A DNA stretch of 63,950 bases, taken from positions 1 to 63,950 of the forward strand of contig SVQH01000017.1 in NCBI GenBank assembly GCA_015065425.1, read 5' to 3'. Each line of letters begins with the position of its first letter. The stretch's first letter is position 1. The notes beneath the pieces are model-generated. The model was not told the origin of the DNA. It did not search any database and saw nothing but the letters and a program-made list of their open reading frames with translations. Made by a program: the position numbers and the translations under genes. This DNA comes from Oscillospiraceae bacterium. Its GTDB lineage: Bacteria; Bacillota; Clostridia; Oscillospirales; Acutalibacteraceae. Of this stretch, positions 3,743 through 57,925 are shown piece by piece.

Positions 3743-5455
3743 TTATCGTCCTATACCGAAAATCTTTATGAAGATGATAAAGAAGTTTTCAATATAAAGC
3801 ATGAGAGTATTTGCTGTATTTGAAAGACTTGTGAGGAGATTATTGCAATTCATTTCGATGCCGTAGCCCTGTAATGTGCCGTTGTTGTCAGCGACACCGT
3901 CACCGTCAAAAGCAAATTCATAAAGAAGAGGAGATACGAGAGCTACAAGGAAATACTGACCTGCCGTTACACCACCGAAGATTTCTGATGTGATTTTTGT
4001 GAAATCCTTTGACATTGAGTCAGTTCCGCCAAGCTGTTTTATTATTTCATTTGCACAGGAGAAGAAAATTTCGTCATTTACCGTTGAAAGGTCATCCTTA
4101 AGAATGAGAGAAACGGTTCTGAGAAGAATTTTTACCTCTGTACTCTGAACCTCAAAGGGTTCTTCACCTGCATAGTGCCATGCAACCAGTTCTGTTGCAA
4201 GGTCCCAGCCTGTTTCATACTCTGAATCGGGAATATTTATGTTATATTCTTTTCCGAGTTCCTGAACGGAATTTTCGCCGTAAAGGGGCATACGAAGAAG
4301 TTTTACAAGCTCACCTACTGCTGTGGATACAAGGGGATAGAATATGGAATCTTCGGCAATTCCCATTTTTTCCATGGAAAGTGACAGTTCAAGTCTGTAC
4401 TGAATACCTGCCTTGAGATATCCCTTTGCGAAAGCATTCATTCCCTCATGCATGAGAGAAAACTGCTCTTCTGTATAACCTTCAATATCCTTAAGAGGTT
4501 CGGTATCAATATCCTCAACGGTTCTTGTTCTGTAGGTTATCTCAGCATCGTTGAGATAAAATACTTTATACTGTAAAGGATACATGGTAAGAGATGTGTT
4601 TGCAAAGTCGTAAATCTTATTGCCGAGAAGAGTGGTATATGATGTGGTGTCAGAGCAATGCTCATGTCCCGTGAAAACGAGCTTTATACCTGCATCTGCA
4701 AAAAGACTTGCAGTGGTATAATGGAAACGGACAATAAAGTTACGGCTTATTATTCTCTGCATGGGAAGATGGTCAAGAAGATTGTGATGCATCATAAGAA
4801 TGGGATATCTTCCGTCTTTGTAAGCCTTTTTTGCTTCATCCAGTACCCATGATACTTTTTTTATGCTCATTCCGTCCTCAGTGGATTTGGAAGGGTCGTT
4901 ACTGTCAAGAGCAATAAGGCGGTAGCTGTCACCAAGATTAGCAGTGTAAGAGCCGTTTTCTTCCATAACACTCAAAGCACCGTTATAACCGAATTCGGCA
5001 TAAACCGATTTAAAGTCGTCAATCTTAAAATCGTTTTCGCCCTGACCGTAGTCGTGGTTACCGGGGATGACATATACGGGCTTTCCTGTTTCTTTTTCAA
5101 ATGCAGAAAGTTTTTCTGCAACATCGTAATGCTCCTGAAAAACCGTTCTTCCGTTATCGGCAAGGTCACCGGGGACAAGAACATATTCTATCGAATCATC
5201 CTCTGCACACTGACGCAGAAACTCATCAATGATAAGTCCGCTTTCATTATCCATGGCGGCACGTCTGTTTGCATACCAGAAAATTTCATGGTCATTTGTC
5301 TTTTCAAGCTCTTCCTGAGGCACATTGTAATGCAAGTCCGATGCTACGGCAAAACCGAGCTCCTTTGTTTCTTTTGTCACAAGTGCAAAGGACATGACGG
5401 AAAGTGTTGAAAAAATAAGAATAGTTGCGAGAATAATACTTAATATCTTTTTCAT
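3743..5455 (-). CDS. Secreted metallophosphoesterase with Phe-rich C-terminal tail
   Basis: The 570-residue exported calcineurin-like phosphoesterase has a signal peptide over residues 1-25 ending near MSFA. Metal-ligand blocks appear in order: ASDLH (about 38-42), VPGDLADNGR (about 95), IPGNHDYG (about 133), MMHHN and FTGHEHCSD. A large helical C-terminal region follows. The end is very hydrophobic and aromatic (LYIENFFIIFIKIFGIGR). Three other secreted proteins here end in similar tails, suggesting a shared surface-association signal. The substrate is unknown; a phosphodiester or nucleotide outside the membrane is likely. AGGAGAG precedes the ATG. Confidence 0.87.
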   Translation of the reverse strand: MKKILSIILATILIFSTLSVMSFALVTKETKELGFAVASDLHYNVPQEELEKTNDHEIFWYANRRAAMDNESGLIIDEFLRQCAEDDSIEYVLVPGDLADNGRTVFQEHYDVAEKLSAFEKETGKPVYVIPGNHDYGQGENDFKIDDFKSVYAEFGYNGALSVMEENGSYTANLGDSYRLIALDSNDPSKSTEDGMSIKKVSWVLDEAKKAYKDGRYPILMMHHNLLDHLPMQRIISRNFIVRFHYTTASLFADAGIKLVFTGHEHCSDTTSYTTLLGNKIYDFANTSLTMYPLQYKVFYLNDAEITYRTRTVEDIDTEPLKDIEGYTEEQFSLMHEGMNAFAKGYLKAGIQYRLELSLSMEKMGIAEDSIFYPLVSTAVGELVKLLRMPLYGENSVQELGKEYNINIPDSEYETGWDLATELVAWHYAGEEPFEVQSTEVKILLRTVSLILKDDLSTVNDEIFFSCANEIIKQLGGTDSMSKDFTKITSEIFGGVTAGQYFLVALVSPLLYEFAFDGDGVADNNGTLQGYGIEMNCNNLLTSLSNTANTLMLYIENFFIIFIKIFGIGR

Positions 5456-5658
5456 TTTTTTCTCTCCTGAATTCAGTTTAATACCATTTTAACAAATGTT
5501 TTTGGGTTTGTATAGATATTTTTTAAATAAAAATAATTATTTAATCTGTACAGCCAGCTCATTTTTCCTTTGCTTATATATAACATAAGCCAAAAGGACG
5601 GCTTTACATTTTGCATCTGAAATGTTATTATTTAATTATTAAAAGGAAGGTGAATATA

Positions 5659-6615
5659 ATGAAGCCGGTTCTTTACATTGTAGTTCCCTGTTACAACGAG
5701 GAAGATGTTCTTCCCGTAACAGCTCCCATGTTTCTTGAAAAATTAAAATCGCTTATCGGTATCGGGAAAATAGCACCTGAAAGCTGCATTCTGTTTGTGG
5801 ATGACGGAAGCCGTGACAGAACATGGAATATAATAACAGCATTAGCCGAAAAGAGCAGATATATCAAAGGGATTTCCCTGAGCCGCAACCGCGGGCATCA
5901 GAATGCCCTTCTTGCAGGACTTAATGAGGCACGGGATAAATGTGACATCACCGTAAGTATAGACTGCGACGGGCAGGATGACATAAATGCCGTGGATGAA
6001 ATGATAGATGAATATCTTTCAGGCAGTGAGATAGTTTACGGTGTCAGAAGCAGCAGAAAAACAGATTCTTTCTTAAAACGCAACACCGCAAGACTTTTTT
6101 ACAGACTCATGTCATTTATGGGAGTCGAAACAGTATACGACCACGCTGATTATCGTCTTGTTTCTTCAAAGGTACTTAAAAGTTTTTCAGATTTCAGGGA
6201 AGTAAATATTTATCTCAGAGGAATGCTTCCTCTTGTGGGATACAGAAGCTCCTGTGTATATTACGAACGAAAAGAACGGCTGGCCGGGAAAAGCAAATAT
6301 TCACCGGCAAAAATGCTGACCCTTGCCCTTGACGGCATAACAAGTCTTTCCGTAAAGCCCATAAGATTTATAACACTTTTCGGCAGTCTCGTTGCCGTTC
6401 TGAGCATCATCGGAATTATCTGGTCGGTAATAGTACAGATAACGGGAAACTCCGTTGCAGGCTGGGCATCTCTTACCTGCATACTGTGTTTTCTCGGCGG
6501 AGTACAGATGATAAGTCTCGGAATAATCGGAGAATACATCGGAAAAATATATCTTGAAACAAAAGGAAGACCCAGATATATAATAGCTGAAAAAACAGAC
6601 AAAAAACAAAATTAA
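5659..6615 (+). CDS. GtrB-like polyprenyl-phosphate glycosyltransferase (GT2)
   Basis: The 318-residue membrane enzyme has an N-terminal GT-A domain (VVPCYNEEDV, VDDGSRD, SIDCDGQDD) and two C-terminal membrane helices (about 240-300), ending in the usual GEYIGKIYLETKGRP. The family transfers glucose or a similar sugar to undecaprenyl phosphate on the cytoplasmic face, feeding later glycosylation outside. AAGGAAGG precedes the ATG at 5659. It is a single gene with a strong terminator and no partner flippase or acceptor transferase alongside. Confidence 0.88.
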   Translation: MKPVLYIVVPCYNEEDVLPVTAPMFLEKLKSLIGIGKIAPESCILFVDDGSRDRTWNIITALAEKSRYIKGISLSRNRGHQNALLAGLNEARDKCDITVSIDCDGQDDINAVDEMIDEYLSGSEIVYGVRSSRKTDSFLKRNTARLFYRLMSFMGVETVYDHADYRLVSSKVLKSFSDFREVNIYLRGMLPLVGYRSSCVYYERKERLAGKSKYSPAKMLTLALDGITSLSVKPIRFITLFGSLVAVLSIIGIIWSVIVQITGNSVAGWASLTCILCFLGGVQMISLGIIGEYIGKIYLETKGRPRYIIAEKTDKKQN

Positions 6616-6624
6616 CAAAGCAAG

Positions 6625-6660
6625 AAAGGTTTAAGTTTGCTGATGTAAACTTAAACCTTT
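6625..6660 (+). terminator. Intrinsic terminator of GT2 gene
   Basis: A perfect 14-bp stem (AAAGGTTTAAGTTT and its complement) with an eight-base loop is followed by TTTT, ten bases after the stop. Confidence 0.9.
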
Positions 6661-6773
6661 TTTGATGATGTAAAACAGTAATTCTGAAATTTTTAATATC
6701 GGAGGAATTCTCCTTCAAAGGCTTTATAAATCATAATTTATCCCGAAGCTTTTCATAAAGAACAAAAAAATTG

Positions 6774-9095
6774 TCAGTTTTCCGTAAGCTTTATACAGGT
6801 GATGGTGATATCGTCATGCTTTCCCGAATCTGAAAACTCAAGAGCTTTTTCAACGGCGGCATTTGCCAGTGTTATAACACCCGTGTTTTTATTATCCCTG
6901 AAAAGCTCCTTGAAGCATACATGGGGAATAACTGAGGCACCGTCCGACATGAGAAATACCGTATCGCCTGCACTCAGGACAATATTACTTTTTTGAAATT
7001 CCGTTTCCCTGAGAATTCCCAAAGGAAGAGAGCTTTTTTCAACGGCAAGAGTTTTGTCACCTCTTTTTATAACACTCGCCGCCGCACCTGCCTTGAAAAA
7101 GAAGGCTTCCCCGCTTTCAAGGTCTATTTTCAGTATATCAAGAGTTGAAAGACTTTCGTCTGCAGATTTTATAAGCAGTGCACAGTTTACTGCTTCAAAA
7201 GCGGATTCGGGAGAAAAACCTGCTCTGAGAAGTCTCGACATAAGAGAACTTGTCATTACGGAATCCACACAGGCTCTTGCACCCGAGCCCATACCGTCAC
7301 TCAATACGGCATAGAAATTTCCCGTACCGTCAAAAAAACATTCACAGGTGTCTCCGCTGAAATCCTCTCCCGTTCCCGTGTGAGAGACAGTATGATATTC
7401 TACCGTATATTTCTTTTCCTGAGTAAATGACAGAACCGTTCCTTCATCCGAATATTCATCTGCAACGGGTTCAAGATAAACCGTACCCGTTGCTTCAAAA
7501 AGTTTTTCAAGAAGAAATGATATATCAGGTATTACCGGCACATGAGAACAGTAAACCTGAAGGGTACTGTGCCCCGCCGTGGAGCTGAACGCACTGATTC
7601 CGAGAACGGAAAACCCCATTTCCCTGAAAACAGGTGCCACAGCAGAGGCACGGACGGGATCGGATTTTGGTATCCTGCTGAAATTTTCTGCGGCATCGTC
7701 AAGAATGTTTCCGAGAGAATAAAACTGCTGAGCTGCCGCTTTTTTTGTTTCATATATATCTTTTTTTGCAACAAGCTTTGCATTGTGTTCGCAATATGCC
7801 TGATTGAAGCTGTCCGTTATTCTGTCTGAAAGTCTGCATATAAGAGAAATGCGGTCGGGCAGGTCATCATAAATAAGTCTTCCCTTTTCAAGCATGGTTT
7901 TCTGTGCTTTTTCAAATGTTTTTTTCGTGATATCTCCGCATTTTGTCCAGCAAAAATCGTATTTTGTGCATTCCTTACATACATCCTCACAAACTGCTTC
8001 GGCAAATGACACAGACAAGCTTTTTTCCGTTTTCTGCAAAAGAGAAGATACGGCTGTAACGGACTGAGAAACATCTCTCAGAGCTTTAGCACTGCGTTTC
8101 AAATCGAAAAGAAGCATTCGCCCCTTTTCATCGTCATAGGCATCACGGCTGAGAGGCATTACCTTCTCTGAAATGCCGTAAAGCAGTTTTTCGGGAATAA
8201 AAACAAAAACGATACCCGAAAAAGCCGCTTCTGCTATAGCTGTTATTGCTGTTTCGCTGTCCCCTCTGAGCACAAGTGCAAGTGTTGAAGAAATTATCAT
8301 ACTTACCGCAACGGGTATTTTTCCGTAAGTACCCGTAAGCCCCGTAAAAAGTCCCGTAAGAATATATCCCGCCATAAGCTGAGGATGTCTTTCGTTGAAG
8401 CCTAAAGTCAGTGCACAGCTAACCCCCGTAATTGAGGATGCCGCCTCCTTTCCGCAAAGAGCAAACAGCATTATCGCAAAATATGCCGTGCATCGGGCAA
8501 GGGAGAAACCGCCTATTGTGAAACTGTCAAGAGAGAGAAGAATAACACAGCCTGAGAAAATGACAGCCACAGTATCAGACGGAGCAAAGAAAGCTCCTTT
8601 TTTTCTGAGAGCTCTTATATTCTGCAATTTCAGTATAAAAGCGGAAAAACAGGCTGATATGAGGGACTCGCACAGGCACATGATTATGTATGAGCTCTCT
8701 CCTCCCACTGCAAGAAAAACTGCAACCGACGAAAAAAATGTTGTAAGAAGTGCCGTGAGAGACGAAAAGAGCATCTGCCTTTTTGCAATAACCTTTTCAT
8801 TCACCCCGAGTTTTATGAGACATATCATAAGTACAGCCGCAACAAATCTCAGGGAGTCAAAGAACCCGAAGAAGAACACATACCCCGATGCCGCACCGAC
8901 AGCACCGCTTAAAAGATATGTACTGCCTATTCCCGCACAAAGTCCCGTTGCAAAAGGGGATATACCGCCTGCAAAAGATATTCCTCCCGAAAGAAAGCTC
9001 AGGATAAAGAACAATGCCTGAAAAAACACAGTCTTCAGTACGGCAAAACCTTTTCCCGTTTTATATAATTCAAGTCTTTTTCTCAATTCTTCCAT
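6774..9095 (-). CDS. spoIIE: Stage II sporulation protein E, PP2C phosphatase
   Basis: This protein dephosphorylates SpoIIAA to activate sigma-F in the forespore and helps polar septation. Roughly 773 residues run from the chosen start: a short cytoplasmic N-terminus, about ten membrane helices to near residue 290, a central regulatory region with a CKECTKYDFCWTKC cysteine cluster, and a C-terminal PP2C domain with LSDGMGSG, FLMSDGAS and KHDDIT metal and catalytic blocks. The ATG at 9095 has AAGGAC about ten bases upstream. The frame continues open to 9248, but those codons overlap the neighbouring terminator and lack a ribosome site. The gene fixes the host as an endospore-forming Firmicute. 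Confidence 0.95.
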   Translation of the reverse strand: MEELRKRLELYKTGKGFAVLKTVFFQALFFILSFLSGGISFAGGISPFATGLCAGIGSTYLLSGAVGAASGYVFFFGFFDSLRFVAAVLMICLIKLGVNEKVIAKRQMLFSSLTALLTTFFSSVAVFLAVGGESSYIIMCLCESLISACFSAFILKLQNIRALRKKGAFFAPSDTVAVIFSGCVILLSLDSFTIGGFSLARCTAYFAIMLFALCGKEAASSITGVSCALTLGFNERHPQLMAGYILTGLFTGLTGTYGKIPVAVSMIISSTLALVLRGDSETAITAIAEAAFSGIVFVFIPEKLLYGISEKVMPLSRDAYDDEKGRMLLFDLKRSAKALRDVSQSVTAVSSLLQKTEKSLSVSFAEAVCEDVCKECTKYDFCWTKCGDITKKTFEKAQKTMLEKGRLIYDDLPDRISLICRLSDRITDSFNQAYCEHNAKLVAKKDIYETKKAAAQQFYSLGNILDDAAENFSRIPKSDPVRASAVAPVFREMGFSVLGISAFSSTAGHSTLQVYCSHVPVIPDISFLLEKLFEATGTVYLEPVADEYSDEGTVLSFTQEKKYTVEYHTVSHTGTGEDFSGDTCECFFDGTGNFYAVLSDGMGSGARACVDSVMTSSLMSRLLRAGFSPESAFEAVNCALLIKSADESLSTLDILKIDLESGEAFFFKAGAAASVIKRGDKTLAVEKSSLPLGILRETEFQKSNIVLSAGDTVFLMSDGASVIPHVCFKELFRDNKNTGVITLANAAVEKALEFSDSGKHDDITITCIKLTEN

Positions 9096-9204
9096 TTTTT
9101 TCAGTCCTTGTTTTTTTCTTCTCATGATATGATAATATCTCAGAAGGAAAAAAACTGTCATAAACGGGCTGTGATAAATGTCGGTATTCGAGTAAAAAGA
9201 AAAA

Positions 9205-9246
9205 GAGAAGAGATATAAAGATACATTCTGTATCTTATCTCTTCTC
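9205..9246 (-). terminator. Intrinsic terminator of radical SAM gene
   Basis: A long inverted repeat (GAGAAGAGATA...TATCTCTTCTC, about 18 paired bases with a small bulge) begins a few bases after the stop at 9253. TTTTTCTTTTT follows on the minus strand. Confidence 0.88.
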
Positions 9247-9252
9247 ATCTTT

Positions 9253-11175: not shown

Positions 11176-11900
11176 TTTTTTTCAACCCTTTTCATTTTGA
11201 AAAATATTCTTAAAGTGGCTTTCATAAAGCCGATATGATATCTGAATGTGAGATGCGAGGAACCGTGTTGACGGCGGTATACTTTTGATGGAAACTCAAT
11301 AACGGGAAGTTTTTGAGTTTCCGCAAGAAGTGCCAGTTCAAGCACAAAGGCTTCGGGACAAAGAAATTTATGGTTCCGTATTATATCTATAGGTGTTGAC
11401 TGAAAAAGATATGTTACATCACTGCCTTTTGTTCTGAAAAGAACTTTCAAAACAAACTGAAAGGCACGATTCATAATAATTTTTATCCTGGGATATTCGC
11501 TGAAACCGTCTTTAAGAAGATTTCTCGACCCCGTTATTATGCAATCAGGATATTTTTTTGAAAGTTCTGCCATAACCGCGATATCATGGGGATCGTTTTC
11601 CATATCTGCACCAATCATAGTTATATGAGAGCCTTTACTCATAGAGATTCCCAGTCTTACCGCGTCTCCCACACCTTTTCCCTTCTGACATGCTATATTA
11701 AAAACAACATCGGGATACATTTCTTTAAAAGAATGAAGATAGCGGACAAAATTTTCATCGGAAAAAGGAGCATAAATAAGTGCAATATCGCTGATATCCT
11801 CCTTTTTACAGGAAGAAAGAATTATGCTGACCACTTCTTTTATGTCTTCAATTTCGTCTATTGTGGGTATTACTATACCCAATCCCGTAAACCTTTTCAC
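11172..11900 (-). CDS. GT2 family glycosyltransferase, soluble DPM1-like
   Basis: The 242-residue protein has GLGIVIPTIDEIEDI at the N-terminus, GVGDAVRLGISMSKG and a GADMENDP acidic motif in place of DXD, and no C-terminal membrane pair. This matches short dolichol-phosphate-mannose-synthase-like transferases. The start is GTG at 11900 with a weak AGG; no better start is visible. It is transcribed first in the pair with the radical SAM gene, divergently from the membrane protein at 12011. The acceptor is unknown. Confidence 0.78.
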   Translation of the reverse strand: MKRFTGLGIVIPTIDEIEDIKEVVSIILSSCKKEDISDIALIYAPFSDENFVRYLHSFKEMYPDVVFNIACQKGKGVGDAVRLGISMSKGSHITMIGADMENDPHDIAVMAELSKKYPDCIITGSRNLLKDGFSEYPRIKIIMNRAFQFVLKVLFRTKGSDVTYLFQSTPIDIIRNHKFLCPEAFVLELALLAETQKLPVIEFPSKVYRRQHGSSHLTFRYHIGFMKATLRIFFKMKRVEKK

Positions 11901-13429: not shown

Positions 13430-13432
13430 AAT

Positions 13433-13469: not shown

Positions 13470-13495
13470 TTTATTTTATAACAGTTATAATTGAT

Positions 13496-15546: not shown

Positions 15547-17208
15547 TTATCCGACAACATTATGTATCGGGAGCATATCTCTTATGGAAGCAAAAATACT
15601 ATTGAAAAAAGCCATAAGAGCACTGAAAAATCTCATAAGAACCGTCAAGGGATTGTTTGACCATAAACCGTCTGTAGCATCATCCTTGCCGACTTCGTTG
15701 AATACACCGTTTTCATATTCGTGGAACTGAGGATATCGTTCATCGCTGTGTACGGTAAAAGTACCGTCAGAGAGGAAAAACTCTGTTGCAATGGGGTCTA
15801 TAAGATTAAGCTGGTCATGCTTCATATTCTTGGAGAACCATGTAGTTTCGGGGAAAAGGCAGGTTCCCGCATAAACCTTCTTGTCCTTTGAAAGATATAT
15901 CGGGTCATAATCTTCCATGTATTCAATCTCACGAAGCTCATAAGCTGAAAAAGTCTCACCGAGAACAGTACCTCTTGCACCGAGGGAAAGCTCTGTTACG
16001 GTACCTCTTGCATCACCCGTAAGTTCACTGCCTTCAAAGAAGGGGAAGGAAGCATAGCCGTATTTTGCAAAAACAGCAGTCTTCATGCCATACTTTTCCT
16101 CGCAGTTTTTAAGCACCTTTGCATAAGCTGCTTCGCCCTTCTCATCAACAACACCCATGAGATCATGATATCTGTCTATTTTTTCAATAAATTCGGCATA
16201 CTGTCCTTCAGGTTCGGTTGTGCCGAAAACCTTAAGCTTTGCCTTTTCATAATATTCATCACCTATCATGGACCAGTATGAAGGGAAGGTGCCGTAAGAG
16301 ACAAGGGCAAGTCCCGGAATAAGTCTGTCGGAGATAACATCATATATCTCCTGTATTTTACTCGCACCCCAGCCGAGAACTTTTGCCTGATTCAGCACGG
16401 AAACAAGAACCATAATAAAAGTATCGATAACAGGGTCCTCAAATATACTCTGGCTGTTCATAAGCACGGTAATATATCTGTCAATGCTGTCTGCTTCAAA
16501 AGTGATTGAACCTGACATAAGAGCACCGACAATGATGTAGCCCGCAATGGGAGTTGTATTGAGAGCAAGATTTTTAACTCTGAATGGTGTACCGTAATAT
16601 CCTTCTTCACTCTTTGCAATATAAGCGGCTGCAACATTTGAGCCGTAGCAACGGGCATGGATGTTTACTTTGTCAACACCCTCTTTTGCACAGACATATT
16701 CAACAAAGGTGTGAAGGTCGTCTGCTATCTCATAAGGAGAATAACGCCAGTCATAGCGGAAATAATAATACTTGAAGCCGCCCATACCGTTTGAGGGCTG
16801 CTGAACAGAATAATTCCAGTCAATTCTTCCGTCAGGGTCTTCACCTTTTTCGTTAAGAACCGCTTCCTGATACACAGGAGCAAAGGCATCTACAAGAGAC
16901 TGAATATAAGTATCGTAATCTCCTGATGTCAAAGCGGGAACCAGAGCCTTAAGCACAGGTTCAACCTGAGTAAGAATATAATCCTCACGTGACATACCGA
17001 GAGGTTTGTTTACATCGTCAACCTGAACACGCTTTCCGCTTTCATCAAGAAGCCAGTTTCCGTTTTCATCTGTCTTATAAACAGGAGTATTCTGTTTACC
17101 CACAATATAAATTATGGGCAATTTTTTCTCTGTTGCGGCACTGACTGTAGGAAGAAAACAGCTCAGTAACATGATAAAAGATAAAACAATACAAAATAAC
17201 TTCTTCAT
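15547..17208 (-). CDS. Secreted LCAT/PDAT-like hydrolase 1 with Cys nucleophile
   Basis: The 553-residue exported alpha/beta-hydrolase has a signal peptide (1-24, cleaved near VSAA). The YDWRYSPYE block (about 152-160) is the LCAT-family YDWR signature. The elbow, normally GHSLG, reads ARCYG with Cys187 in the serine position. A later TCLFPETTW...KHD block holds a candidate catalytic His. The tail is aromatic and amphipathic (MAFFNSIFASIRDMLPI). A paralogue lies at 30079-31758 with the same replacement. Lipid ester or acyl transfer chemistry is inferred from the family. AAAGGAAG precedes the ATG. Confidence 0.8.
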   Translation of the reverse strand: MKKLFCIVLSFIMLLSCFLPTVSAATEKKLPIIYIVGKQNTPVYKTDENGNWLLDESGKRVQVDDVNKPLGMSREDYILTQVEPVLKALVPALTSGDYDTYIQSLVDAFAPVYQEAVLNEKGEDPDGRIDWNYSVQQPSNGMGGFKYYYFRYDWRYSPYEIADDLHTFVEYVCAKEGVDKVNIHARCYGSNVAAAYIAKSEEGYYGTPFRVKNLALNTTPIAGYIIVGALMSGSITFEADSIDRYITVLMNSQSIFEDPVIDTFIMVLVSVLNQAKVLGWGASKIQEIYDVISDRLIPGLALVSYGTFPSYWSMIGDEYYEKAKLKVFGTTEPEGQYAEFIEKIDRYHDLMGVVDEKGEAAYAKVLKNCEEKYGMKTAVFAKYGYASFPFFEGSELTGDARGTVTELSLGARGTVLGETFSAYELREIEYMEDYDPIYLSKDKKVYAGTCLFPETTWFSKNMKHDQLNLIDPIATEFFLSDGTFTVHSDERYPQFHEYENGVFNEVGKDDATDGLWSNNPLTVLMRFFSALMAFFNSIFASIRDMLPIHNVVG

Positions 17209-30078: not shown

Positions 30079-31758
30079 TCAGGAATTAAACAAACCGTTA
30101 AAGAAATCTGAAAGTGCCTTCCATATAAGCTTCATCATTTCGACAAAGGAAGCAAACACGCTTCTGAAAGTAGGCTTCTGCTGAACTTCCGTAATCCAGG
30201 ATCCGTCTGCCATATTCTCTTCTGTCATATTAACGAATTCTCTTTTATCGGAACTGTCAAAAACAAGGAATCTGCCGATGTCTCTGCTGTTTGAATTAAC
30301 TGTTACATTTGTATACTGAGTGAAGTATTCTGCAAGATATACGTATGAACTGCCGTAGTCGTGGTGCTTGTTCTTGATTATCCAGGTGGTTTCCGGGAAA
30401 AGACAGGTAGAAGCATCTATCTTGCGGTCAGGAGAGATATATTCTCCAAGTCCCTGTGCCTCTTTTTCAGCAATATATTCATCACTGAGAGTGTCGAAAA
30501 GACCTGCAGCAGTACCGCCAAAGGAAGCATCGACAAAACCAACAACACAGTCACTTGTTTCATCGAAATGTTCCATAATGGGAGCATTTGTAAGACCGTA
30601 GCCTGCAAGAACACCTATTTCAACACCGTATTCATCTGCGAACTTTTTGTAAAGGTCGGGAGCAGCCTTAACAATGTGTTCTCTGATATACTGAATCTTT
30701 TTAACAAGACCTGCATTTTCTTTTCTTGTTTCAGTGCCTTCTTTTCCGAAAACAAGGTCAAGTGCCTGATCAAAATCCTCTTCGTAAACACTGCACCAAT
30801 AGTTTGCCCAGGTGCCGATACCTGTAGCTCTGAGCATAGCAGGGATAAATGCTTCATAGAGTCTTTCATAAAGATTTTCAACACCGCCGAAGACCATATT
30901 CAGGATTCCCGCTTGTGTTGCGTAATCAAGCACTGCTTCCACAAGCTCAAGAGTAAATTCACTGATACCTTCAAGGTCAATACCCTGACCGTCCCGTCCG
31001 AAATATTCAGCCTGAAGTAAATATGACTGTGAATGCTTGTCACTGAATGCTATCTTACCGCTGAAGCAGTCGTTTACTATTGAACTGCCGTTTGACATAA
31101 CCTCGTCATAGAATACCTTTTTGACAAGACCCTGATCGCCGTATTTTTCAAGGTAAGCCGTGATAACACTGCCGCCGAGACATCTGCCCACAAGGCAAAC
31201 CTGTGAGCACTTTGTGGTTTTGATGATATCCTGAATATATTTGTGGAGTCTGTCAACGTGGTCATAGGGAGAAAGACGCCAGTCATAGCGGAATTTATAG
31301 TCATTGATATTGAATGTACCGTCAGCACCGGTATTCTGGGTTTGAGCTTTTTTATCCCACTTTTCTATTTCAGCCTTGGAAACACCTGTGCCGTACTTTG
31401 CATTTCCGTCTCCGTCAAGCTGAGTTTCATCCCAGATGGGTGCCAATTCTTCATAAAGTGCCTTACCGTAATTATCCCACTTATTGAAGGGCAGACCTTC
31501 AAGCAGGAAGGGCTTAAGTATGTTCATTGCAGTTTCAATGATTTTATCTGTTGTCATATCTCCTTCGTCATCGTCGGTTATGACATCAAAGCCTGTGGAA
31601 ATTTCATTTCCCTCGGCATCACAGATTTCAATGGAGCTGCCTGCAATAAAAATTATAGGACTTTTTTCTTTCTTTTCAGTTGCAGCGGCAGAAGCGGTTG
31701 AAGCAAAGATACCGAACACCATTAAAAGAGATAAAAACAGTGCTGTGATTTTTTTCAT
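30079..31758 (-). CDS. Secreted LCAT/PDAT-like hydrolase 2 with Cys nucleophile
   Basis: The 559-residue paralogue of the protein at 15547-17208 has a signal peptide (1-26, TASAAA). The RYDWRLSPYDHVDRLHKYI block matches LCAT. The elbow is VGRCLGGSVITAYL with Cys193 in the usual Ser position, reminiscent of the GxCxGG of dienelactone hydrolase. The conserved STCLFPETTW...KHHD block holds the probable His. The C-terminus is aromatic and amphipathic (MKLIWKALSDFFNGLF). GGAGG precedes the ATG. It may attack lipid or wall esters outside the cell; catalysis with Cys is inferred, not shown. Confidence 0.8.
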   Translation of the reverse strand: MKKITALFLSLLMVFGIFASTASAAATEKKEKSPIIFIAGSSIEICDAEGNEISTGFDVITDDDEGDMTTDKIIETAMNILKPFLLEGLPFNKWDNYGKALYEELAPIWDETQLDGDGNAKYGTGVSKAEIEKWDKKAQTQNTGADGTFNINDYKFRYDWRLSPYDHVDRLHKYIQDIIKTTKCSQVCLVGRCLGGSVITAYLEKYGDQGLVKKVFYDEVMSNGSSIVNDCFSGKIAFSDKHSQSYLLQAEYFGRDGQGIDLEGISEFTLELVEAVLDYATQAGILNMVFGGVENLYERLYEAFIPAMLRATGIGTWANYWCSVYEEDFDQALDLVFGKEGTETRKENAGLVKKIQYIREHIVKAAPDLYKKFADEYGVEIGVLAGYGLTNAPIMEHFDETSDCVVGFVDASFGGTAAGLFDTLSDEYIAEKEAQGLGEYISPDRKIDASTCLFPETTWIIKNKHHDYGSSYVYLAEYFTQYTNVTVNSNSRDIGRFLVFDSSDKREFVNMTEENMADGSWITEVQQKPTFRSVFASFVEMMKLIWKALSDFFNGLFNS

Positions 31759-49214: not shown

Positions 49215-49218
49215 ATAA

Positions 49219-50375: not shown

Positions 50376-50516
50376 AACTGTTTCTCCTTTTTCCGTTTGT
50401 AACATTCTGTACCGCTAAAGGGTCATACCCGTATATGTTAAAAAAGACTTAAAACAACGGTATATCTGTAAGAGTGCATCTGCGGACGATTTTCTCATTC
50501 ATAGAACAAGGCTTTT

Positions 50517-51635: not shown

Positions 51636-51668
51636 TGAAAAATCCCCTTTCCGCCGATTATAGCAGAA

Positions 51669-52038
51669 TTATATCACATCACTTTTAATAAATAAATCAT
51701 CATTATCACTGTAATAAGTAAGGATAATTGTTGCTTTTCCGTTCTTATCAACACCATAAAGGAAATAGATATTTTCAATCTTATTTTTTTGCCGGAATTT
51801 CCTTTTCACAGTCATAAAGCATACCATACCAATAAAAAGCGTAGTAACCCTTTAACTTTTCATAGGAGTAAAAATCAAAAACACCGTTAAAAACTGACGG
51901 ACGGGCATCATAATACATCAGCATATTGGTGGGCAAGTGCTGAGACGCACACATACAAGCCATTGTAAATAATGCATCCTTAATACCGTGAATTGCTTTA
52001 AGGAAATAGACATAATAAAAAAACGAAAATACCTGCAA
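51669..52038 (-). pseudogene. C-terminal remnant of a glycosidase
   Basis: An open stretch encodes NMLMYYDARPSVFNGVFDFY then LKGYYAFYWYGMLYD, the kind of C-terminal segment found in GH39-like or related xylosidases and arabinosidases. It has no real start, since the frame begins inside the terminator of the next gene. The frame breaks at an A7 run (about 51782-51788). One fewer A joins it to a 30-residue ending (IENIYFLYGVDKNGKA) that stops at 51669. The gene has lost its N-terminus and is decaying. The exact GH family is uncertain. Confidence 0.6.
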
Positions 52039-52069
52039 ACGGAAAACAAACGGTTCGATTTGCAGGTAT
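52029..52069 (-). terminator. Intrinsic terminator of beta-helix gene, repeated unit
   Basis: ATACCTGCAAA and TTTGCAGGTAT form an 11-base stem followed by TTTTCGTTTTTT on the minus strand. Related sequence occurs at 42320-42350 and 54250-54290. Confidence 0.8.
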
Positions 52070-52077
52070 AATTCAAT

Positions 52078-54009
52078 TTATGATGAAATCGGGGTCTTGA
52101 ATATTGCCTTGTTCATCGAAACACAAAGCTGTCCGAAAAGCAAATCGCTGAAATTGTTAACCGTTATTTCCTGCGGGGAAACAACGGGGTATGCAGCATT
52201 ATATGAATCGGTAATATGCTTTGAATTAACCATGGGGAAAATAAAATTCATTCCGATACTGTGAACAAAGAAGCCGTCAATTTCTATTCTTTGAGGCAGA
52301 TAACAGGTATATCCGAAATTATGGTCCTCGGAATTTTCAGCATTGACAATATTGTTTGAAATGCCTGTGGGATAAAACTTACAGTTGCGGATAATAAGCT
52401 CACCGTTCCAGGTTGAACCGTAATCTGAACGAAGGTCAACAAAGCTGTCGGATAAAACAGTTGTATTCTCAATCAGAGCTGTTCCCATACCTATCAGCTT
52501 TATTCCGTGATGGCCGAGAACGGAATTTTTAATCGTCGCATTAAGAACCCCCTGATGTGCATCAAATCGAGAAAAAGCACAGCCGTCATACATGAGATTC
52601 TTGCAGTAGTTAGTACCTGCAATTCCCCAGTAATCACCGTCTGTTATATCGTTAGTCTGCTTGCAGTTGATAAAGCTTGCATTGACTGCCGTTGCGGCAC
52701 CTATATCGTAAGTGCCCATTGAAACGGATGTACCTGCAGAGCCTATGGTTGAATACTTTTTATGTCCCGTGAATGTACCGTTCTTTACAGTGACATCGGC
52801 ACAGCAGGAAAGGCTGACAAAAGCCGAATAGGGAGCCCCTGTTTTGCCCTCATTTATAACATCGTGATATATGCCGTCTATAACGGTATTAGAACGTCTG
52901 ACCTGAATACCCCTTGCATAATAGGTGTATTCGGAAGGAGCACAGTTTGCAATAGTTGTGAATCTGCCGCCTTTTACGGTTAATGTTTCGGTGTCGATGG
53001 GATAAACGGTGGCACCGGTAATTGCATCAAAGTCCCATATAAGGGGAGTATCGGGCGAAATATTTCCGCTTTTATCAACAAGAATAACATCTGACTGATT
53101 GCTGCCCGAATTCTGGTTTGCACCCTTGCGGATATAACGCTTTACATTTGAATCTGTAAGCACCACAAGGCTTTTGGCCGAAAGTGTCGTGCCTATATTT
53201 GTGGCATCAATTTTAAGAGGAGAAACCTTATCCGTTATAGAATATGAGCTTTCTGACGGAGCAATATTGAATACCCATGCACCTATTTTTTCAACGTTAG
53301 TATCGTCAATTATAAAACGAGCGGTTGACCAATCGGTATCGGTCTTGATGATAGCGGTTTTGTTTGCACCGCCGATATAATATGTTGCAGTTTCATTTGC
53401 AAAAACACTCAAACCGTTTTCGTTTGCATATTCATGGGTTTTTACAATAGCTTCAAAATCATCTGCTTTGCCGTCACCCACAGCCCCGAAATCCTCATAA
53501 ATAACGAAATCAGAGAAGGTTTTATTATACTCATAACCGTCTTTAAAATCGTAACTGCCTTCTGCATTCAGCAGAACTTCATCAGCGAAAGCCGAAATTC
53601 CTCTTGAAATTCCGGTTTTCGTACTGCCCGTGATATAGACATTACCGTTTTCAACCCTGAGATTGAAGCTGTCGGTATCGGAAAGAGCCGTGCTGATTAT
53701 AAAGCTTTTTTCCGCAGCAGTCTCTGTTATTGCAATCTCCTTGCCACAGGCTTTATGAAATTCATTGTTCAAAGTTTTTGCTGCATTGAAGTACAAAGAG
53801 GCCTCTGTACTGTCGGGAGTAACAACGCAGTATTCGTCTATGGACACACCGTTTACGGTTATCCCGTCAAGCGGTCTCACAATATACGGGCTTTCATAGC
53901 TACCCTGTGAAAGCTCATATTTCAGCACCGATTCAGAGAAAAACTGCGAAAGCGGAGCAGGCAAGCAAGAAACAATACACATAAACACCGCAATTATTTG
54001 TGAAAACAT
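52078..54009 (-). CDS. Secreted right-handed beta-helix polysaccharide enzyme
   Basis: The 643-residue exported protein has a signal peptide (1-24). An N-terminal domain (about 45-150, VNGVSIDEYCVV) resembles the accessory domain seen before many clostridial glycan enzymes. A pectate-lyase-3-type beta-helix then begins at YEDFGAVGDGKADDFEAI (about 172), followed by many parallel-strand coils (NTVIDGIYHDV, DVTVKNGTFTG). It may be a lyase or hydrolase for pectin-like or other anionic glycans, but no catalytic residue set is certain. GGGGG precedes the ATG. The upstream region has several palindromes. Confidence 0.8.
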   Translation of the reverse strand: MFSQIIAVFMCIVSCLPAPLSQFFSESVLKYELSQGSYESPYIVRPLDGITVNGVSIDEYCVVTPDSTEASLYFNAAKTLNNEFHKACGKEIAITETAAEKSFIISTALSDTDSFNLRVENGNVYITGSTKTGISRGISAFADEVLLNAEGSYDFKDGYEYNKTFSDFVIYEDFGAVGDGKADDFEAIVKTHEYANENGLSVFANETATYYIGGANKTAIIKTDTDWSTARFIIDDTNVEKIGAWVFNIAPSESSYSITDKVSPLKIDATNIGTTLSAKSLVVLTDSNVKRYIRKGANQNSGSNQSDVILVDKSGNISPDTPLIWDFDAITGATVYPIDTETLTVKGGRFTTIANCAPSEYTYYARGIQVRRSNTVIDGIYHDVINEGKTGAPYSAFVSLSCCADVTVKNGTFTGHKKYSTIGSAGTSVSMGTYDIGAATAVNASFINCKQTNDITDGDYWGIAGTNYCKNLMYDGCAFSRFDAHQGVLNATIKNSVLGHHGIKLIGMGTALIENTTVLSDSFVDLRSDYGSTWNGELIIRNCKFYPTGISNNIVNAENSEDHNFGYTCYLPQRIEIDGFFVHSIGMNFIFPMVNSKHITDSYNAAYPVVSPQEITVNNFSDLLFGQLCVSMNKAIFKTPISS

Positions 54010-54038
54010 TTTTCCATCCCCCTAAAAACCTTTTACTG

Positions 54039-54122
54039 TTATAACACATAACAATTCCGATAACTCAGTTAAAAAGACTTGTTATGTTTCTATTATATCT
54101 TTAAGATTGAAGTTATGCAAGA
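54039..54122 (-). promoter_or_regulatory. Promoter and nested palindromes before beta-helix gene
   Basis: On the minus strand TTGCAT (54117-54122) and TATAAT (54094-54099) are 17 bases apart. Downstream lie CATAACA...TGTTATG (54049-54088) enclosing TAACTCAGTTA (54063-54073), then the perfect palindrome TGTTATAACA (54039-54048). The layout suits repressor control. Confidence 0.6.
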
Positions 54123-54181
54123 GTAAGTATTAGAGAATGCTTTCTGTTAACCATTTAATATCACCAATCTTCTGAATATAA

Positions 54182-54300
54182 CAGAATTATATCACATTGT
54201 TTTTATTAAATAAATAAGGTGCAATTGTTTAAAAGGCGAAAAAATAAAAATACCTGAAAACGGAACACAAGTGGTTCTGCTTGCAAATATTGCACATTTA
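54182..54300 (-). repeat. Second copy of intergenic promoter-terminator cassette
   Basis: CAGAATTATATCACAT plus a TTTTA-TAAATAAAT tract repeats 51664-51695. A degenerate ATACCTG...TTGCAAATAT arm pair repeats the terminator at 52029-52069. The glycosidase remnant lying between these parts in the other copy is absent here. With 54010-54181 this is the whole gene-free gap before 54403. Confidence 0.55.
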
Positions 54301-54402
54301 TTGTATGAACTGCATAAAAAAAGCATTATTATTTTGTTGTTTTGAGTATATATACTACTTCTTGTTTTATGATAAAATGAAAAAAAATACATAAGAGGTG
54401 TT

Positions 54403-56511
54403 ATGATGAAAGAAATGACAGAAAAAAAGAGAAAAATTATTTCTTTTGCAGGAACGGCATTGAGTCTCATTCTTCTGATTGTATCCCTGCAATTTTATCA
54501 CCGTGAATATCTCCCATGGACTAATGTAGGCTTAGTCTATACCCTTGCCGCACTTTCATGCATTGCATTTTGTGCCTTGACGGTATTTACCTTACTGATA
54601 AAAGAAAAAAGTATTCCGAAAATTATAATAAAAACTTTTATTTCCACATTGGTTTATGTGCTTGTCCTTTTTGTTCTTACATTAATTCTCAACAATGTAT
54701 TGGGCTTAAACGGACACCTTGACAGCATCCTTTATGATAGGATACCTTCAAATCAATTTGCCATAACGATAACCTATGTTGTTATCGGCTTGATGACAAG
54801 TATTCTTCTCAGCATTTTTCTTAAGCACGCCTTCAGGATAAAAATCATTCCTCTTATTCAGGCGATACTTATTATACTCCCCGGCATTTACGGACTTGTC
54901 GAGCTTGATGATATTATCCCTTCACTTGAAGGCTTGTATCCCGCCTACCGGTTTTTTGCTTCTCAGGGAGGTACCGAAACTGCTGATAAAAACATTTTTT
55001 ACGATTTTGCTTTTTCGACGGAAAAGCTTCAGCCCTATGATAATCTCGGCACGGATACCGGGATGAGTATTTCTCTTGCAAAAAATGAGCGTGAAGCTTT
55101 CCAATTAGCGGTGTATTCCGATAAAAATGACAAAAAAATAAGTGTTACCTGCAGCGACTTCTCCAATGAAAAAGGCGAAAGCATTCCCGTAAGAATTTTT
55201 AATGAAAGATTTGTGGAAGTTCCGATGTACGGTACAAACAAATTCACCGATATGTATCCCGACGGACTTCTTCCGCTTTCAAAGGAAACACGTATTGAAC
55301 TCATAAAAGATGAGCTTTCAATATTTTATATTGAAACCGTCAGTACAAAAGAAACTTCTGCCGGGGAATATACGGCAACTCTCAAACTTTATGACCAAAA
55401 CGACAATGAAATTCTCTCCAAAGAAATAAAGGCTGAAATCTGGGACTTTGTTCTCGATGAAGAGTACTTCTCCGAAAGTGCAATGGGACTTTTCTCCGGA
55501 GCTTTCTGGGAGCTGATGGGATATGAACCGGCAGGATACGGCGGAAACGGTGGTCTAAGGGAACCGCTTGACGATGAACGACAAAAAGTTTATGAGCAAT
55601 ATTATAATTTCCTTCTTGAACATCACATTAGTGCGTATGTTCTGCCCTATGATATACTCGATGAGAGAGCAGATGCCTATATGAGCGACCCTGCCGTTAA
55701 GTCCTTCCAGATTCCCTACACCGAGGATGAAGAATTATTAAAACAGTATTATGAAAAAGTTACGTCCAATGAAGAATGGGTTAGAAAAGCTTACTTTTAT
55801 CCCATTGACGAGCCTAAGGATGAAGAGGCATATAACAGATATACCGAAATGACAGATTATCTGGCAAGACTGTTTCCCGGATATAATATGGTTACTCCCT
55901 TCTTTGTCACCGATGTTGAAATAGGAGGAACAACATATTCCTCCGCAGAGCTTCAGAGTGAAAAAAGCTCAATTTTATGTCCCATTTCAAATATTTTCGA
56001 TGAAGAAGATTTCAATCGGAAGCTGTACAGCACTATTGAGGAAAATGAAAATTCAAAACTCTGGTGGTATGTATGCTGCGGCCCCACAGGCGAATACAAC
56101 AATCTCTTTATACATCTGGATGCAATACGCCACAGAATTTTATTCTGGCAGCAATACGAGAGAGATGTCGATGGCTTCTTGTACTGGAACAGTATTTATT
56201 GTGACAAGGGGAATCCCTGGGAAACCTCAAAAACCTGGGACAAGTATGAATCTGCCGGTGACGGTTGCCTGATATATCCCGGCAAGTTTATGGATATAGA
56301 TGAACCCGTTGCAACATTAAGACTTAAAAATGTTGCAGACGGTATGGAGGATTATGCTTATCTTCGTCTTTGCGAGAAAATCAAGGGAAGCGAATGGGTG
56401 GATCAGAAAATTTTGGAGATAACCGATTCACTTACAAGCTATACCACCGATGATACATTGCTTCAGAATGTGCGAAAAGAACTGGCAAAAGCCATTTGTG
56501 AAGCACAATAA
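54403..56511 (+). CDS. Membrane-anchored DUF4091 glycosidase-like protein
   Basis: The 702-residue protein is built of two parts. Residues 1-170 contain about five membrane helices. The large extracytoplasmic part has a beta-sandwich region (about 200-345) and a TIM-barrel-like region ending in the DUF4091 signature GDGCLIYPG...PVATLRLKNVADGMEDYAYL. YFYPIDEPKD in the barrel offers candidate acidic catalytic residues. DUF4091 proteins are usually soluble or secreted, so the N-terminal membrane block is unusual. AGAGGTG precedes the ATG. Confidence 0.8.
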   Translation: MMKEMTEKKRKIISFAGTALSLILLIVSLQFYHREYLPWTNVGLVYTLAALSCIAFCALTVFTLLIKEKSIPKIIIKTFISTLVYVLVLFVLTLILNNVLGLNGHLDSILYDRIPSNQFAITITYVVIGLMTSILLSIFLKHAFRIKIIPLIQAILIILPGIYGLVELDDIIPSLEGLYPAYRFFASQGGTETADKNIFYDFAFSTEKLQPYDNLGTDTGMSISLAKNEREAFQLAVYSDKNDKKISVTCSDFSNEKGESIPVRIFNERFVEVPMYGTNKFTDMYPDGLLPLSKETRIELIKDELSIFYIETVSTKETSAGEYTATLKLYDQNDNEILSKEIKAEIWDFVLDEEYFSESAMGLFSGAFWELMGYEPAGYGGNGGLREPLDDERQKVYEQYYNFLLEHHISAYVLPYDILDERADAYMSDPAVKSFQIPYTEDEELLKQYYEKVTSNEEWVRKAYFYPIDEPKDEEAYNRYTEMTDYLARLFPGYNMVTPFFVTDVEIGGTTYSSAELQSEKSSILCPISNIFDEEDFNRKLYSTIEENENSKLWWYVCCGPTGEYNNLFIHLDAIRHRILFWQQYERDVDGFLYWNSIYCDKGNPWETSKTWDKYESAGDGCLIYPGKFMDIDEPVATLRLKNVADGMEDYAYLRLCEKIKGSEWVDQKILEITDSLTSYTTDDTLLQNVRKELAKAICEAQ

Positions 56512-56580
56512 TACTTTTATGTAATTCAATTTATTTAAAGATAAATCCGTCCTCTTTATAGGGTTACTGAGGACAAAAAA

Positions 56581-56615
56581 AGAGTCAATGCAAAACTTTT
56601 CTCTGCATTGACTCT
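56581..56615. terminator. Terminator after DUF4091 gene
   Basis: AGAGTCAATGCA and TGCATTGACTCT form a perfect 12-base stem. Seven T follow on the minus strand and TTTGTTT on the plus strand, so it may work both ways. Confidence 0.8.
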
Positions 56616-56824
56616 TGATTTGTTTACCGCCCCCCCAAAGATAATGTATGCATCATCAAAGGAATCAGTATTCATTTTTTCAATAATCATTACCATTCAA
56701 AAATCAAGTTGAGGTTCGATTCCTGCCGTTCCTGAAAAGATGGGAACACGAACGGTAATCATTAAAAGATAGTTAACTAATCAAAATTTATTATTCTTAG
56801 AAAAAAAGCAGATGTCAGACTGAA
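56616..56824. other. Gene-free spacer with tRNA T-arm-like fragment
   Basis: No gene is seen. Near 56709-56725 the sequence GAGGTTCGATTCCTGCC resembles a tRNA T-arm, but only the inner pairs match and no acceptor, D or anticodon arm is found. It may be a leftover attachment site or chance. Confidence 0.3.
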
Positions 56825-57925
56825 TTAAAGCTCAAAAAACTGATGAAACAGCATACAGAGATCGTGAAAAAAAGATAAAATACACTGTCCGAATTCAGCG
56901 AGCGAATCCCCCAGATCTTTTATTAAACGCTCAAATACGGAAAGTCTGTTGTCCTCATCATAACCGTTTACATCCTTATATACGCGGATATAATCAATTA
57001 GCCATTCTATAGGGTAGACATTTGAGGGTTCATCCCAACCGCTGAAATCAGAATTGATATACATGGATAATATCATACACATTCTGTATTGCGGGGATTC
57101 TTCGGTCTTTGATATTTCTTTTCCGTCGACATAAAAGGTTATTCCCTCAGGCCGCCAATCCATAGCATAGGTATGAAATTCATTGGAATAATCTGCCGCC
57201 TCGCCCCTGAGCTCGACCATGTCCGACCATTCGCAAAGATCGGGGTCGTTCCAGGCGTGAACCTTAGGTTCAATCACTCCGGGATTCCTGAAGAAGGTCT
57301 CAAAAATATCAATTTCGCCGTTTTGCTCGGACGTTCCGTCAATCCCGACATCCTCTTCAGCACCTATAAGCCACCATGCAGCATATCCGCCACCGCCGAT
57401 TTCGGGCATCTTCATTCTTATTTCAAAATACCCGTACTGTGTGGCGTATCCCTCGAAAGGCTCAACATCCGTTTTTTGCTCGCCGCCGGGATGAAGATTA
57501 TTCTTTTCCCATGTCTGAATACCGTTTGCTATCCATTTAAGATTATCGGGATCCGACGAACCCGGCTGACCGCCGAAATAATCGGGAGAATCTTTCAGTA
57601 TATATAAATTAAGACAACCGTCCTCGACCTTATATCGTGCAGATGCCCCGTCTGTACTTCCTGTGCAGTGAGGAAGATATTGAGGCAGCCAGTAGTCTGT
57701 ATTTAATTTTCCGTCATTAAATTCAGTGCTGAAATCAAGTACATAGCCTTCCTTCTCCGGAACACCGTTCTCTGCTTCATCTGAAGCCCCCGAAAGCCCG
57801 CTTTCATCCCCCTCATTTATTTCAGTGCAAAATCCCACAGACGACAAGCCCATCAGCATAATTAAAGCAAGTATCAAAGAAAGACTCTTCTTAAACACAA
57901 TGTTCATCCTTTCCCGTAAATTCAT
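56825..57925 (-). CDS. Secreted GH16 beta-glucanase with Phe-rich C-terminal tail
   Basis: The exported glycosidase of about 357-366 residues has a signal peptide (ends near SVGFC), an acidic linker (about 35-58) and a jelly-roll GH16 domain with catalytic GEIDIFE (Glu204, Asp206, Glu209 counting from 57925) and FHTYAMDWRPEGITFYVDG. Likely substrates are beta-1,3/1,4-glucans. After the domain a tail ends CILSFFHDLCMLFHQFFEL, resembling those of three other secreted proteins here. The start is uncertain: GTG at 57898 has AAAGGATG at good distance; ATG at 57907 or 57925 has poorer sites. Confidence 0.88.
   Translation of the reverse strand: MNLRERMNIVFKKSLSLILALIMLMGLSSVGFCTEINEGDESGLSGASDEAENGVPEKEGYVLDFSTEFNDGKLNTDYWLPQYLPHCTGSTDGASARYKVEDGCLNLYILKDSPDYFGGQPGSSDPDNLKWIANGIQTWEKNNLHPGGEQKTDVEPFEGYATQYGYFEIRMKMPEIGGGGYAAWWLIGAEEDVGIDGTSEQNGEIDIFETFFRNPGVIEPKVHAWNDPDLCEWSDMVELRGEAADYSNEFHTYAMDWRPEGITFYVDGKEISKTEESPQYRMCMILSMYINSDFSGWDEPSNVYPIEWLIDYIRVYKDVNGYDEDNRLSVFERLIKDLGDSLAEFGQCILSFFHDLCMLFHQFFEL

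What the first reader, a model, noticed from the sequence alone, without database searches (positions are those of the whole stretch)
3743..57925. Shared aromatic amphipathic C-terminal tail on four unrelated secreted proteins
The metallophosphoesterase, both LCAT-like hydrolases and the GH16 enzyme have signal peptides, unrelated catalytic domains, and end within 20-35 residues of Phe/Ile/Leu-rich amphipathic helix (for example NFFIIFIKIFG, AFFNSIFASI, ALSDFFNGLF, LSFFHDLCMLF). None has an LPXTG or lipobox. A common tail on different enzymes suggests a surface-retention or sorting signal of this lineage, possibly with a dedicated partner. The beta-helix and CAP proteins here lack it.
Basis: partly seen in the sequence, partly recalled or inferred. 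Interest (0 to 1): 0.72.

Follow-up and report, generated by a model that had tools for sequence, protein, structure and literature searches.

The report
Shared amphipathic tail on exported proteins
An uncultured gut Clostridia lineage ends many unrelated exported proteins with the same kind of short, phenylalanine-rich helix with one greasy side, probably a general way of holding them on the cell membrane, and the tail matched no described protein family in our searches.

Summary
The tails exist as described, but the four in the window are divergent members of something clearer elsewhere in the genome. A profile of six tails from outside the window finds further copies, 12 of 15 new rows ending 0-2 residues before a stop codon; consensus about SF[FW]xxIxxFFxKIxxFFRNLF. 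Of 19 C-terminal carriers, the 16 with complete 5' ends all have predicted signal peptides. Their bodies differ. All 17 other congeneric genomes have it (190 matches); a class sample has it in 2 of 392, own included, though some sister genera carry it. It is separable: one congeneric GH16 orthologue lacks it. Lys/Arg flank the greasy face and Asp/Glu sit opposite, 14 s.d. beyond shuffles, as in lipid-binding class A helices; phosphoesterase orthologues keep amphipathicity at 21% tail identity. Best reading: a general C-terminal in-plane membrane anchor that works like the PBP5 anchor but is used on many unrelated proteins. A dedicated partner is neither shown nor excluded. Nothing was localised.

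The parts
3746..3850 (-). C-terminal tail (residues 536-570) of the secreted metallophosphoesterase; most hydrophobic and least certain of the four
   Evidence: translation; AlphaFold helix 536-565; last 30 residues significantly amphipathic in 55 of 79 orthologues, internal controls 28 of 237; this tail alone p 0.28
3743..5455 (-). secreted metallophosphoesterase carrying the tail
   Evidence: PF00149, 4.1e-14; nearest solved structure Lmo2642, 2xmo
15550..15651 (-). tail (residues 520-553) of LCAT-like hydrolase 1, PLTVLMRFFSALMAFFNSIFASIRDMLPIHNVVG
   Evidence: E 0.0047 among 287 C-termini, profile without window sequences; p 0.025; a similar tail in the 3 orthologues found
15547..17208 (-). 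LCAT-like hydrolase 1
   Evidence: no Pfam hit
30082..30174 (-). tail (residues 529-559) of LCAT-like hydrolase 2, PTFRSVFASFVEMMKLIWKALSDFFNGLFNS
   Evidence: p 0.013; E 0.61; meets the heptad pattern
30079..31758 (-). LCAT-like hydrolase 2
   Evidence: (PF02450, 1.8e-4)
56828..56947 (-). tail (residues 327-366) of the GH16 enzyme
   Evidence: p 0.0005; E 0.66; kept in 2 of 4 congeneric orthologues, short in one, absent in one
56825..57925 (-). secreted GH16 enzyme
   Evidence: PF00722, 1.5e-14

Best explanation
The tail is a modular C-terminal in-plane membrane anchor. The protein is exported by its signal peptide (inferred), folds outside, and a flexible linker rich in Gly, Asp, Glu, Pro, Asn and Ser ends in a 20-25 residue class A amphipathic helix, ideally three heptads FFxKIxx closing in FRNLF near the C-terminus. 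The Phe/Ile/Leu face lies in the outer leaflet of the cytoplasmic membrane, Lys/Arg at its edges contact lipid head groups, and Asp/Glu face away. This keeps enzymes and giant adhesin-like proteins at the cell without lipid modification, sortase or dockerin. Shown by sequence: recurrence, C-terminal position, predicted signal peptides, charge geometry, separability, lineage restriction. Inferred: helix formation for most tails, membrane binding, and retention.
For: (1) Recurrence: from 6 seed tails outside the window, 12 of the 15 non-seed rows with E<=0.01 end 0-2 residues before a stop codon; one (L050) ends 15 before it and two (L045, L054) are N-terminal. Domains of the carriers differ. 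(2) With the 18-tail profile, 19 of 21 listed own-genome rows at E<=0.001 (22 in all, one not listed) are C-terminal; 16 of the 16 with a readable 5' end have a predicted signal peptide, against 44 of 287 sampled ORFs with a signal peptide and no further transmembrane stretch. All 18 profile members come from this genome, so most of these rows match by construction. (3) In relatives, not used for the profile, 17 of 17 congeneric genomes match, and in 26 of 28 fetched loci the tail ends within 5 residues of the C-terminus. (4) Reversed-profile control in the own genome: 0 rows at E<=0.001, best 0.0069. (5) Charge geometry in 69 tails: Lys/Arg at a mean of 118 and Asp/Glu at 164 degrees from the hydrophobic face; difference 46.5, 2000 shuffles 0 with s.d. 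3.3 and maximum 11.4; 23 tails under 60% identical give 43.3. The hydrophobic positions were imposed by the search pattern and are not counted as evidence. (6) MPE orthologues: 56% mean pairwise identity in the body and 21% in the tail (32 sequences), yet hydrophobic-moment z 2.29 (79 sequences) against 0.52 in 237 internal 30-mers. (7) Not transmembrane: 1 of 71 tails reaches 1.7 over 19 residues. (8) Separability: GH16 orthologue L303 stops right after the domain, with no tail seen in the next 210 bases in three frames; by eye 7 of 12 LCAT-like genes carry a tail. (9) Precedent: the C-terminal amphipathic helix attaches E. coli PBP5 to the outer face of the inner membrane, and the form lacking the last 18 residues is soluble (PMC2909392, passages). 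(10) Among the weak library matches are LL-37/CAP18 and phenol-soluble modulins, membrane-active helices, next to unrelated families such as phiKZ_IP, PorH and YhfH; none is significant over 18 queries.
Against: No lipid-binding or localisation data. In the canonical form some polar positions are conserved beyond what lipid binding needs (Arg/Lys 62 of 72 and Asn 40 of 72 in FRNLF), which hints at recognition. The exact seven-residue repeat fits a coiled coil as well as a surface helix; the moment is 0.618 at 100 and 0.619 at 103 degrees. None of the three S11 carboxypeptidases of this genome, the family of the precedent, ends in the canonical tail. The window MPE tail is not significantly amphipathic alone and is nearly transmembrane-like, as are 8 of 79 orthologous tails; 24 of 79 orthologous tails are not significantly amphipathic. 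8 of 26 tail proteins match a loose lipobox inside the signal peptide, so some could be lipoproteins.
Confidence: 0.63

Rival explanations
1. The tail is a docking peptide read by a dedicated partner of this lineage (scaffold, wall or sorting protein) that retains or assembles its carriers.
For: Conserved polar residues and a closing FRNLF near the C-terminus in unrelated proteins. Shared Phe codons are no more alike than chance (0.578, expected 0.593; 17 own-genome rows, one of them a 51-aa chance frame), so the similarity is not recent copying. Patchy, lineage-bound distribution.
Against: MPE tails drift to 21% identity while amphipathicity stays. Genus g348 uses a shorter variant followed by an extension. 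No partner is known; none was searched for.
Confidence: 0.2
2. The tails assemble with each other as coiled coils or helical barrels, building multi-protein complexes at the surface.
For: Exact heptads with hydrophobic g, a and d positions.
Against: Class A charge placement. Divergent MPE tails lack strict heptads.
Confidence: 0.08
3. The tail binds lipids other than the cell's own membrane (substrate lipid, vesicles, host membranes), like an interfacial lipase helix or a membrane-active peptide.
For: Library matches, none significant, to LL-37/CAP18 and phenol-soluble modulins. LCAT-like carriers may act on lipids.
Against: Carriers include a GH16 enzyme and Flg_new adhesin-like giants with no evident lipid role.
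Confidence: 0.06
4. The tail is simply the last helix of each catalytic domain.
For: All 79 MPE orthologues examined run on at least 32 residues past a Gly-Tyr-Gly-like landmark (loose pattern), and 55 of 79 are significantly amphipathic there.
Against: Similar tails on many unrelated domains; a GH16 orthologue without it; LCAT-like paralogues without it; sequence homology of the MPE to Lmo2642 ends at profile position 335 of 567.
Confidence: 0.03

Closest known systems
C-terminal amphipathic anchor of E. coli PBP5 (DacA family)
   Same: Exported protein whose last element is an amphipathic helix that attaches it to the membrane (18 residues in PBP5; PMC2909392, passages).
   Different: PBP5 is one enzyme family; here the tail sits on many unrelated proteins with a shared heptad sequence, and the S11 enzymes of this genome do not end in the canonical form. 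Membrane binding is shown for PBP5, not here.
Tripartite C-terminal sorting signals (LPXTG, PEP-CTERM, GlyGly-CTERM, MYXO-CTERM)
   Same: One short C-terminal module on many unrelated exported proteins of one lineage (MYXO-CTERM: dozens per genome; PMC11980579, passages).
   Different: No processing motif seen, no transmembrane helix, no basic cytoplasmic cluster.
Class A amphipathic helices and in-plane anchors of monotopic proteins
   Same: Lys/Arg at the polar/non-polar boundary, acids opposite; interfacial basic residues are thought to help anchor such helices (PMC6914677, passages). In-plane anchors as a class: PMC1564421, passages. The definition of class A is recalled.
   Different: As far as recalled, those are described in individual proteins, not as a tag shared across a secretome.
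Dockerin modules
   Same: C-terminal module on unrelated exported proteins; dockerin-like repeats occur in this genome too, including on an S11 enzyme (recognised by eye).
   Different: Calcium-binding repeats (recalled) against one amphipathic helix.

Membership tests
PBP5-type C-terminal in-plane membrane anchor | Exported protein with a signal peptide | tested here: met
   16 of 16 carriers with readable 5' ends, home-made predictor; the four window genes too
PBP5-type C-terminal in-plane membrane anchor | Last element is an amphipathic, non-transmembrane helix | tested here: met
   Charge geometry, 1 of 71 transmembrane-like, predicted helix 536-565 in the MPE model; the window MPE tail is borderline
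PBP5-type C-terminal in-plane membrane anchor | Binds the outer face of the cytoplasmic membrane; removal releases the protein | not testable with these tools
   Needs fractionation or liposomes
PBP5-type C-terminal in-plane membrane anchor | Homology to the DacA/S11 family | tested here: not met
   Carriers scanned belong to other families or have no Pfam hit; it may work like that anchor but is not a member of that protein family
Sortase-type tripartite sorting signal | Processing motif, then transmembrane helix, then basic residues | tested here: not met
   one LPATD upstream of the linker in L069, taken as chance
Bacterial lipoprotein | Lipobox cysteine at the signal-peptide cleavage site | tested here: inconclusive
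   Strict pattern in 1 of 26 tail proteins (L002), loose pattern in 8 of 26 (patterns recalled)
Described protein family in Pfam or NCBIfam | Match above the curated cut-off | tested here: not met
   18 canonical tails, no significant family; PF12699 phiKZ_IP reaches 24.5 bits on L068, cut-off 27
Phenol-soluble modulin or cathelicidin | Free peptide with homologous sequence | tested here: not met
   Best E 0.0011 (PSMalpha) over 18 queries, PDB best 0.6; here the helix ends large proteins

The most novel reading that the evidence does not exclude
A lineage-specific surface-sorting system, parallel to sortase and dockerin, in which a shared C-terminal heptad helix (FFxKIxx repeats ending FRNLF) is read by an unknown partner or self-assembles, displaying dozens of unrelated proteins, including frames of 4,000-10,000 aa, on an uncultured gut bacterium.
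Probability: 0.22. Interest if true: 0.82.

Novelty: new variant of a known kind. Interest (0 to 1): 0.6.

Why it matters
If right, a Gram-positive-type lineage keeps part of its exported proteome at the cell with a plain amphipathic helix in place of a lipid, a covalent wall link or a dockerin. That would add a route to surface display, give a sequence tag for predicting surface proteins in uncultured gut Clostridia, and offer a small transplantable tether. It also makes a question testable: how giant exported proteins without known anchors stay on such cells.

Tried and rejected
Crude Phe/Trp counting did not separate signal-peptide proteins outside the window. The first profile does not recover the four window tails genome-wide at E<=10; they are divergent. 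Sortase-type, transmembrane and strict lipoprotein readings were tested and mostly dropped. Recent copying of one DNA module was tested through Phe codon sharing and not supported. S11 enzymes were checked as carriers and do not end in the canonical tail. Two N-terminal look-alikes (L045, L077) were set aside as possible atypical signal peptides.

Papers: the 10 searches listed no title that reports such a shared tail; searches returned no papers. Only passages were seen of PMC2909392, PMC1564421, PMC5817068, PMC12445088, PMC11980579 and PMC6914677. PMC5817068, a review of surface display in monoderm bacteria, has no occurrence of amphipathic, amphiphilic, monotopic or in-plane in its main text. 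This is no proof of absence in print.

Limits: signal peptides and transmembrane segments were called with a home-made rule and ORFs without a gene finder; kinship labels are the tool's and unnamed. Tails of L016, L023 and of the LCAT-like paralogues L002 and L011 were recognised by eye; L016 then scored E 0.0033, L023 is not among the rows printed there. Rows dropped: 3 of 72 tails before the charge test (one from the window, one from a 51-aa chance ORF, one irregular); 1 of 80 MPE loci (L142, short ORF). Two MPE loci without the 5' end (L170, L204) were kept. The LCAT-like structure job had not finished at the last poll and is not used. L072 was not scanned against Pfam.
Full report
What was claimed and what is there. 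Four secreted proteins of the window end in Phe/Ile/Leu-rich amphipathic stretches. Three of the four are amphipathic beyond shuffles of their own residues (GH16 p 0.0005, LCAT-like 2 0.013, LCAT-like 1 0.025), the metallophosphoesterase (MPE) is not (0.28), and the CAP and beta-helix proteins show nothing.

The wider family. The genome gives 13 rows, 12 genes, similar to LCAT-like 1. By eye 7 of the 12 end in such a tail, among them L003, L006 and L007, whose tails are cleaner than those of the window, and 5 do not, L009 being unclear. A profile of 6 tails without any window sequence was run on the genome. Of 15 non-seed rows with E<=0.01, 12 end 0-2 residues before the stop, one 15 residues before it (L050), and two are N-terminal (L045, L054/L077). 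The consensus of 18 tails is xSFFxxIxxFFxKIxxFFRxLF. Carriers read in full include Metallophos proteins (L075; L078 with a weak tail, E 0.058), an Abhydrolase_2 esterase (L019), a GLUG protein (L069), three Flg_new proteins of 2,107-2,417 aa, two of them with Big_2 (L066, L067, L076), and a 4,594-aa frame (L072, not scanned); L064, L065 and L073 have no Pfam hit and L068 only a sub-threshold one. Two more were recognised by eye: L016 (Metallophos) and L023 (papain, lectin-like, LRR_5).

Export. With the 18-tail profile the own genome gives 22 rows at E<=0.001; 21 are listed, 19 of them C-terminal. Three of the 19 frames start beyond a contig edge; the other 16 all have a predicted signal peptide, against 44 of 287 sampled ORFs with a signal peptide and no further transmembrane stretch. 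All 18 profile members come from this genome, so most of these rows match by construction; the independent evidence is the first profile above and the relatives below. The reversed profile gives 0 rows at E<=0.001, best 0.0069.

Distribution. All 17 other congeneric genomes have 1-16 matches, 190 in all; 11 genomes of other families of the order have none. Of the 30 loci fetched there, 28 are from relatives, and in 26 of these the tail ends within 5 residues of the C-terminus; L098 and L099 did not fit the pattern. In a class sample 2 of 392 genomes match at E<=1e-5, the own genome and one other with a single row. In an order sample 1 of 245, the own genome; the 18 listed genomes of other genera of the same family have none. 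Against strict genus restriction: the MPE occurs in 10 of 80 sampled genomes of the family; of the 8 outside the genus, 7 have tail rows at E<=0.1, and g383, g387, g346 and g373 have strong C-terminal ones (best E 1.7e-9 to 1.9e-5); g348 has a shorter variant with an extension, and G708 has none. Of 24 MPE-bearing genomes reached through named records, 24 of the 80 loci fetched, 17 have rows at E<=0.001 and 7 none; G421 and G441 there look identical to G001 and G007. Record titles are Clostridia, Clostridiales, Oscillospiraceae and Ruminococcaceae MAGs; those that name a source are mostly from herbivore guts.

Separable from the enzyme. GH16 orthologues were found in 4 of 25 relatives, all congeneric: two keep a tail, one (L304, frame interrupted) ends in a short FSSFLQRLF, and one (L303) stops after the domain with no tail in the next 210 bases in three frames. 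LCAT-like 1 orthologues, in 3 of the same 25, all end in a similar tail. The MPE keeps a 31-42 residue extension after its last conserved Gly-Tyr-Gly column in the 32 aligned sequences, with 56% mean identity in the body and 21% in the tail; across 79 orthologues the last 30 residues have a hydrophobic-moment z of 2.29 against 0.52 in 237 internal stretches, significant in 55 of 79 against 28 of 237; 8 of 79 are transmembrane-like. All 79 run on at least 32 residues past a loosely defined landmark. The MPE model (mean pLDDT 83.4) ends in a helix 536-565 of falling confidence; the nearest solved structure is Lmo2642.

Geometry. In 69 canonical tails Lys/Arg lie on average 118 degrees and Asp/Glu 164 degrees from the hydrophobic-moment direction; the difference of 46.5 exceeds all 2000 shuffles (maximum 11.4). 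Hydrophobic positions were required by the pattern and prove nothing. Net charge averages +1.8. Tails are not transmembrane-like (1 of 71). The 20 residues before them are rich in Gly, Asp, Glu, Pro, Asn, Ser and Thr. Shared Phe codons are used as expected by chance (0.578 and 0.593), so recent copying is not supported.

Mechanism. An exported protein whose last helix is amphipathic, cationic at its edges and joined by a flexible acidic linker resembles the PBP5 anchor, which tethers that enzyme to the outer face of the inner membrane (PMC2909392, passages). I therefore read the tail as a general in-plane anchor, 0.63. The conserved Arg-Asn of FRNLF and the exact heptads leave room for a partner or self-assembly. 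Whether retention at the membrane, under a cell wall, suffices for surface display of giant proteins is open.

Known or new. No Pfam or NCBIfam family matches significantly and the paper searches listed no report. The physics is known; its use as a shared tag across unrelated exported proteins appears to be a new variant.

Noticed in passing
396-2177 (+) and 61800-63578 (-): Two genes that look like large serine recombinases (recognised by eye), 54% identical, face inward near both ends of the window, which is itself a whole contig (C13).
   Followed up: partly
L045 (G000:C14:16329-16388), L077 (G000:C10), window 52078-54009: Tail-like helices at the N-terminus of an alpha/beta-hydrolase-like and a beta-helix-like protein (functions by eye); the window beta-helix protein begins in a similar way. 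They may be odd signal peptides or N-terminal anchors.
   Followed up: no
L055 (G000:C22:44805-44858): A canonical tail-like stretch in the middle of a 179-aa frame, about 100 residues before its end.
   Followed up: no
L080 1378-2499: An S11 carboxypeptidase-like protein ends in dockerin-like repeats (repeats recognised by eye).
   Followed up: no
L040, L044, L052, L091, L106, L107: A motif like DxDxxxxCDxC often stands before the linker and tail.
   Followed up: no
G016:C38 (L100), G014:C33 (L105), G007:C5 (L093): Open frames of 10,643, 10,516 and 7,197 aa end in the tail.
   Followed up: no
L068 tail: PF12699 (phiKZ internal head protein) hits the tail just under its cut-off, so automatic annotation may mislabel such proteins as phage proteins.
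   Followed up: partly
L026 about 9000-9170: A 68-codon frame ending in a tail without signal peptide, possibly a gene remnant.
   Followed up: partly
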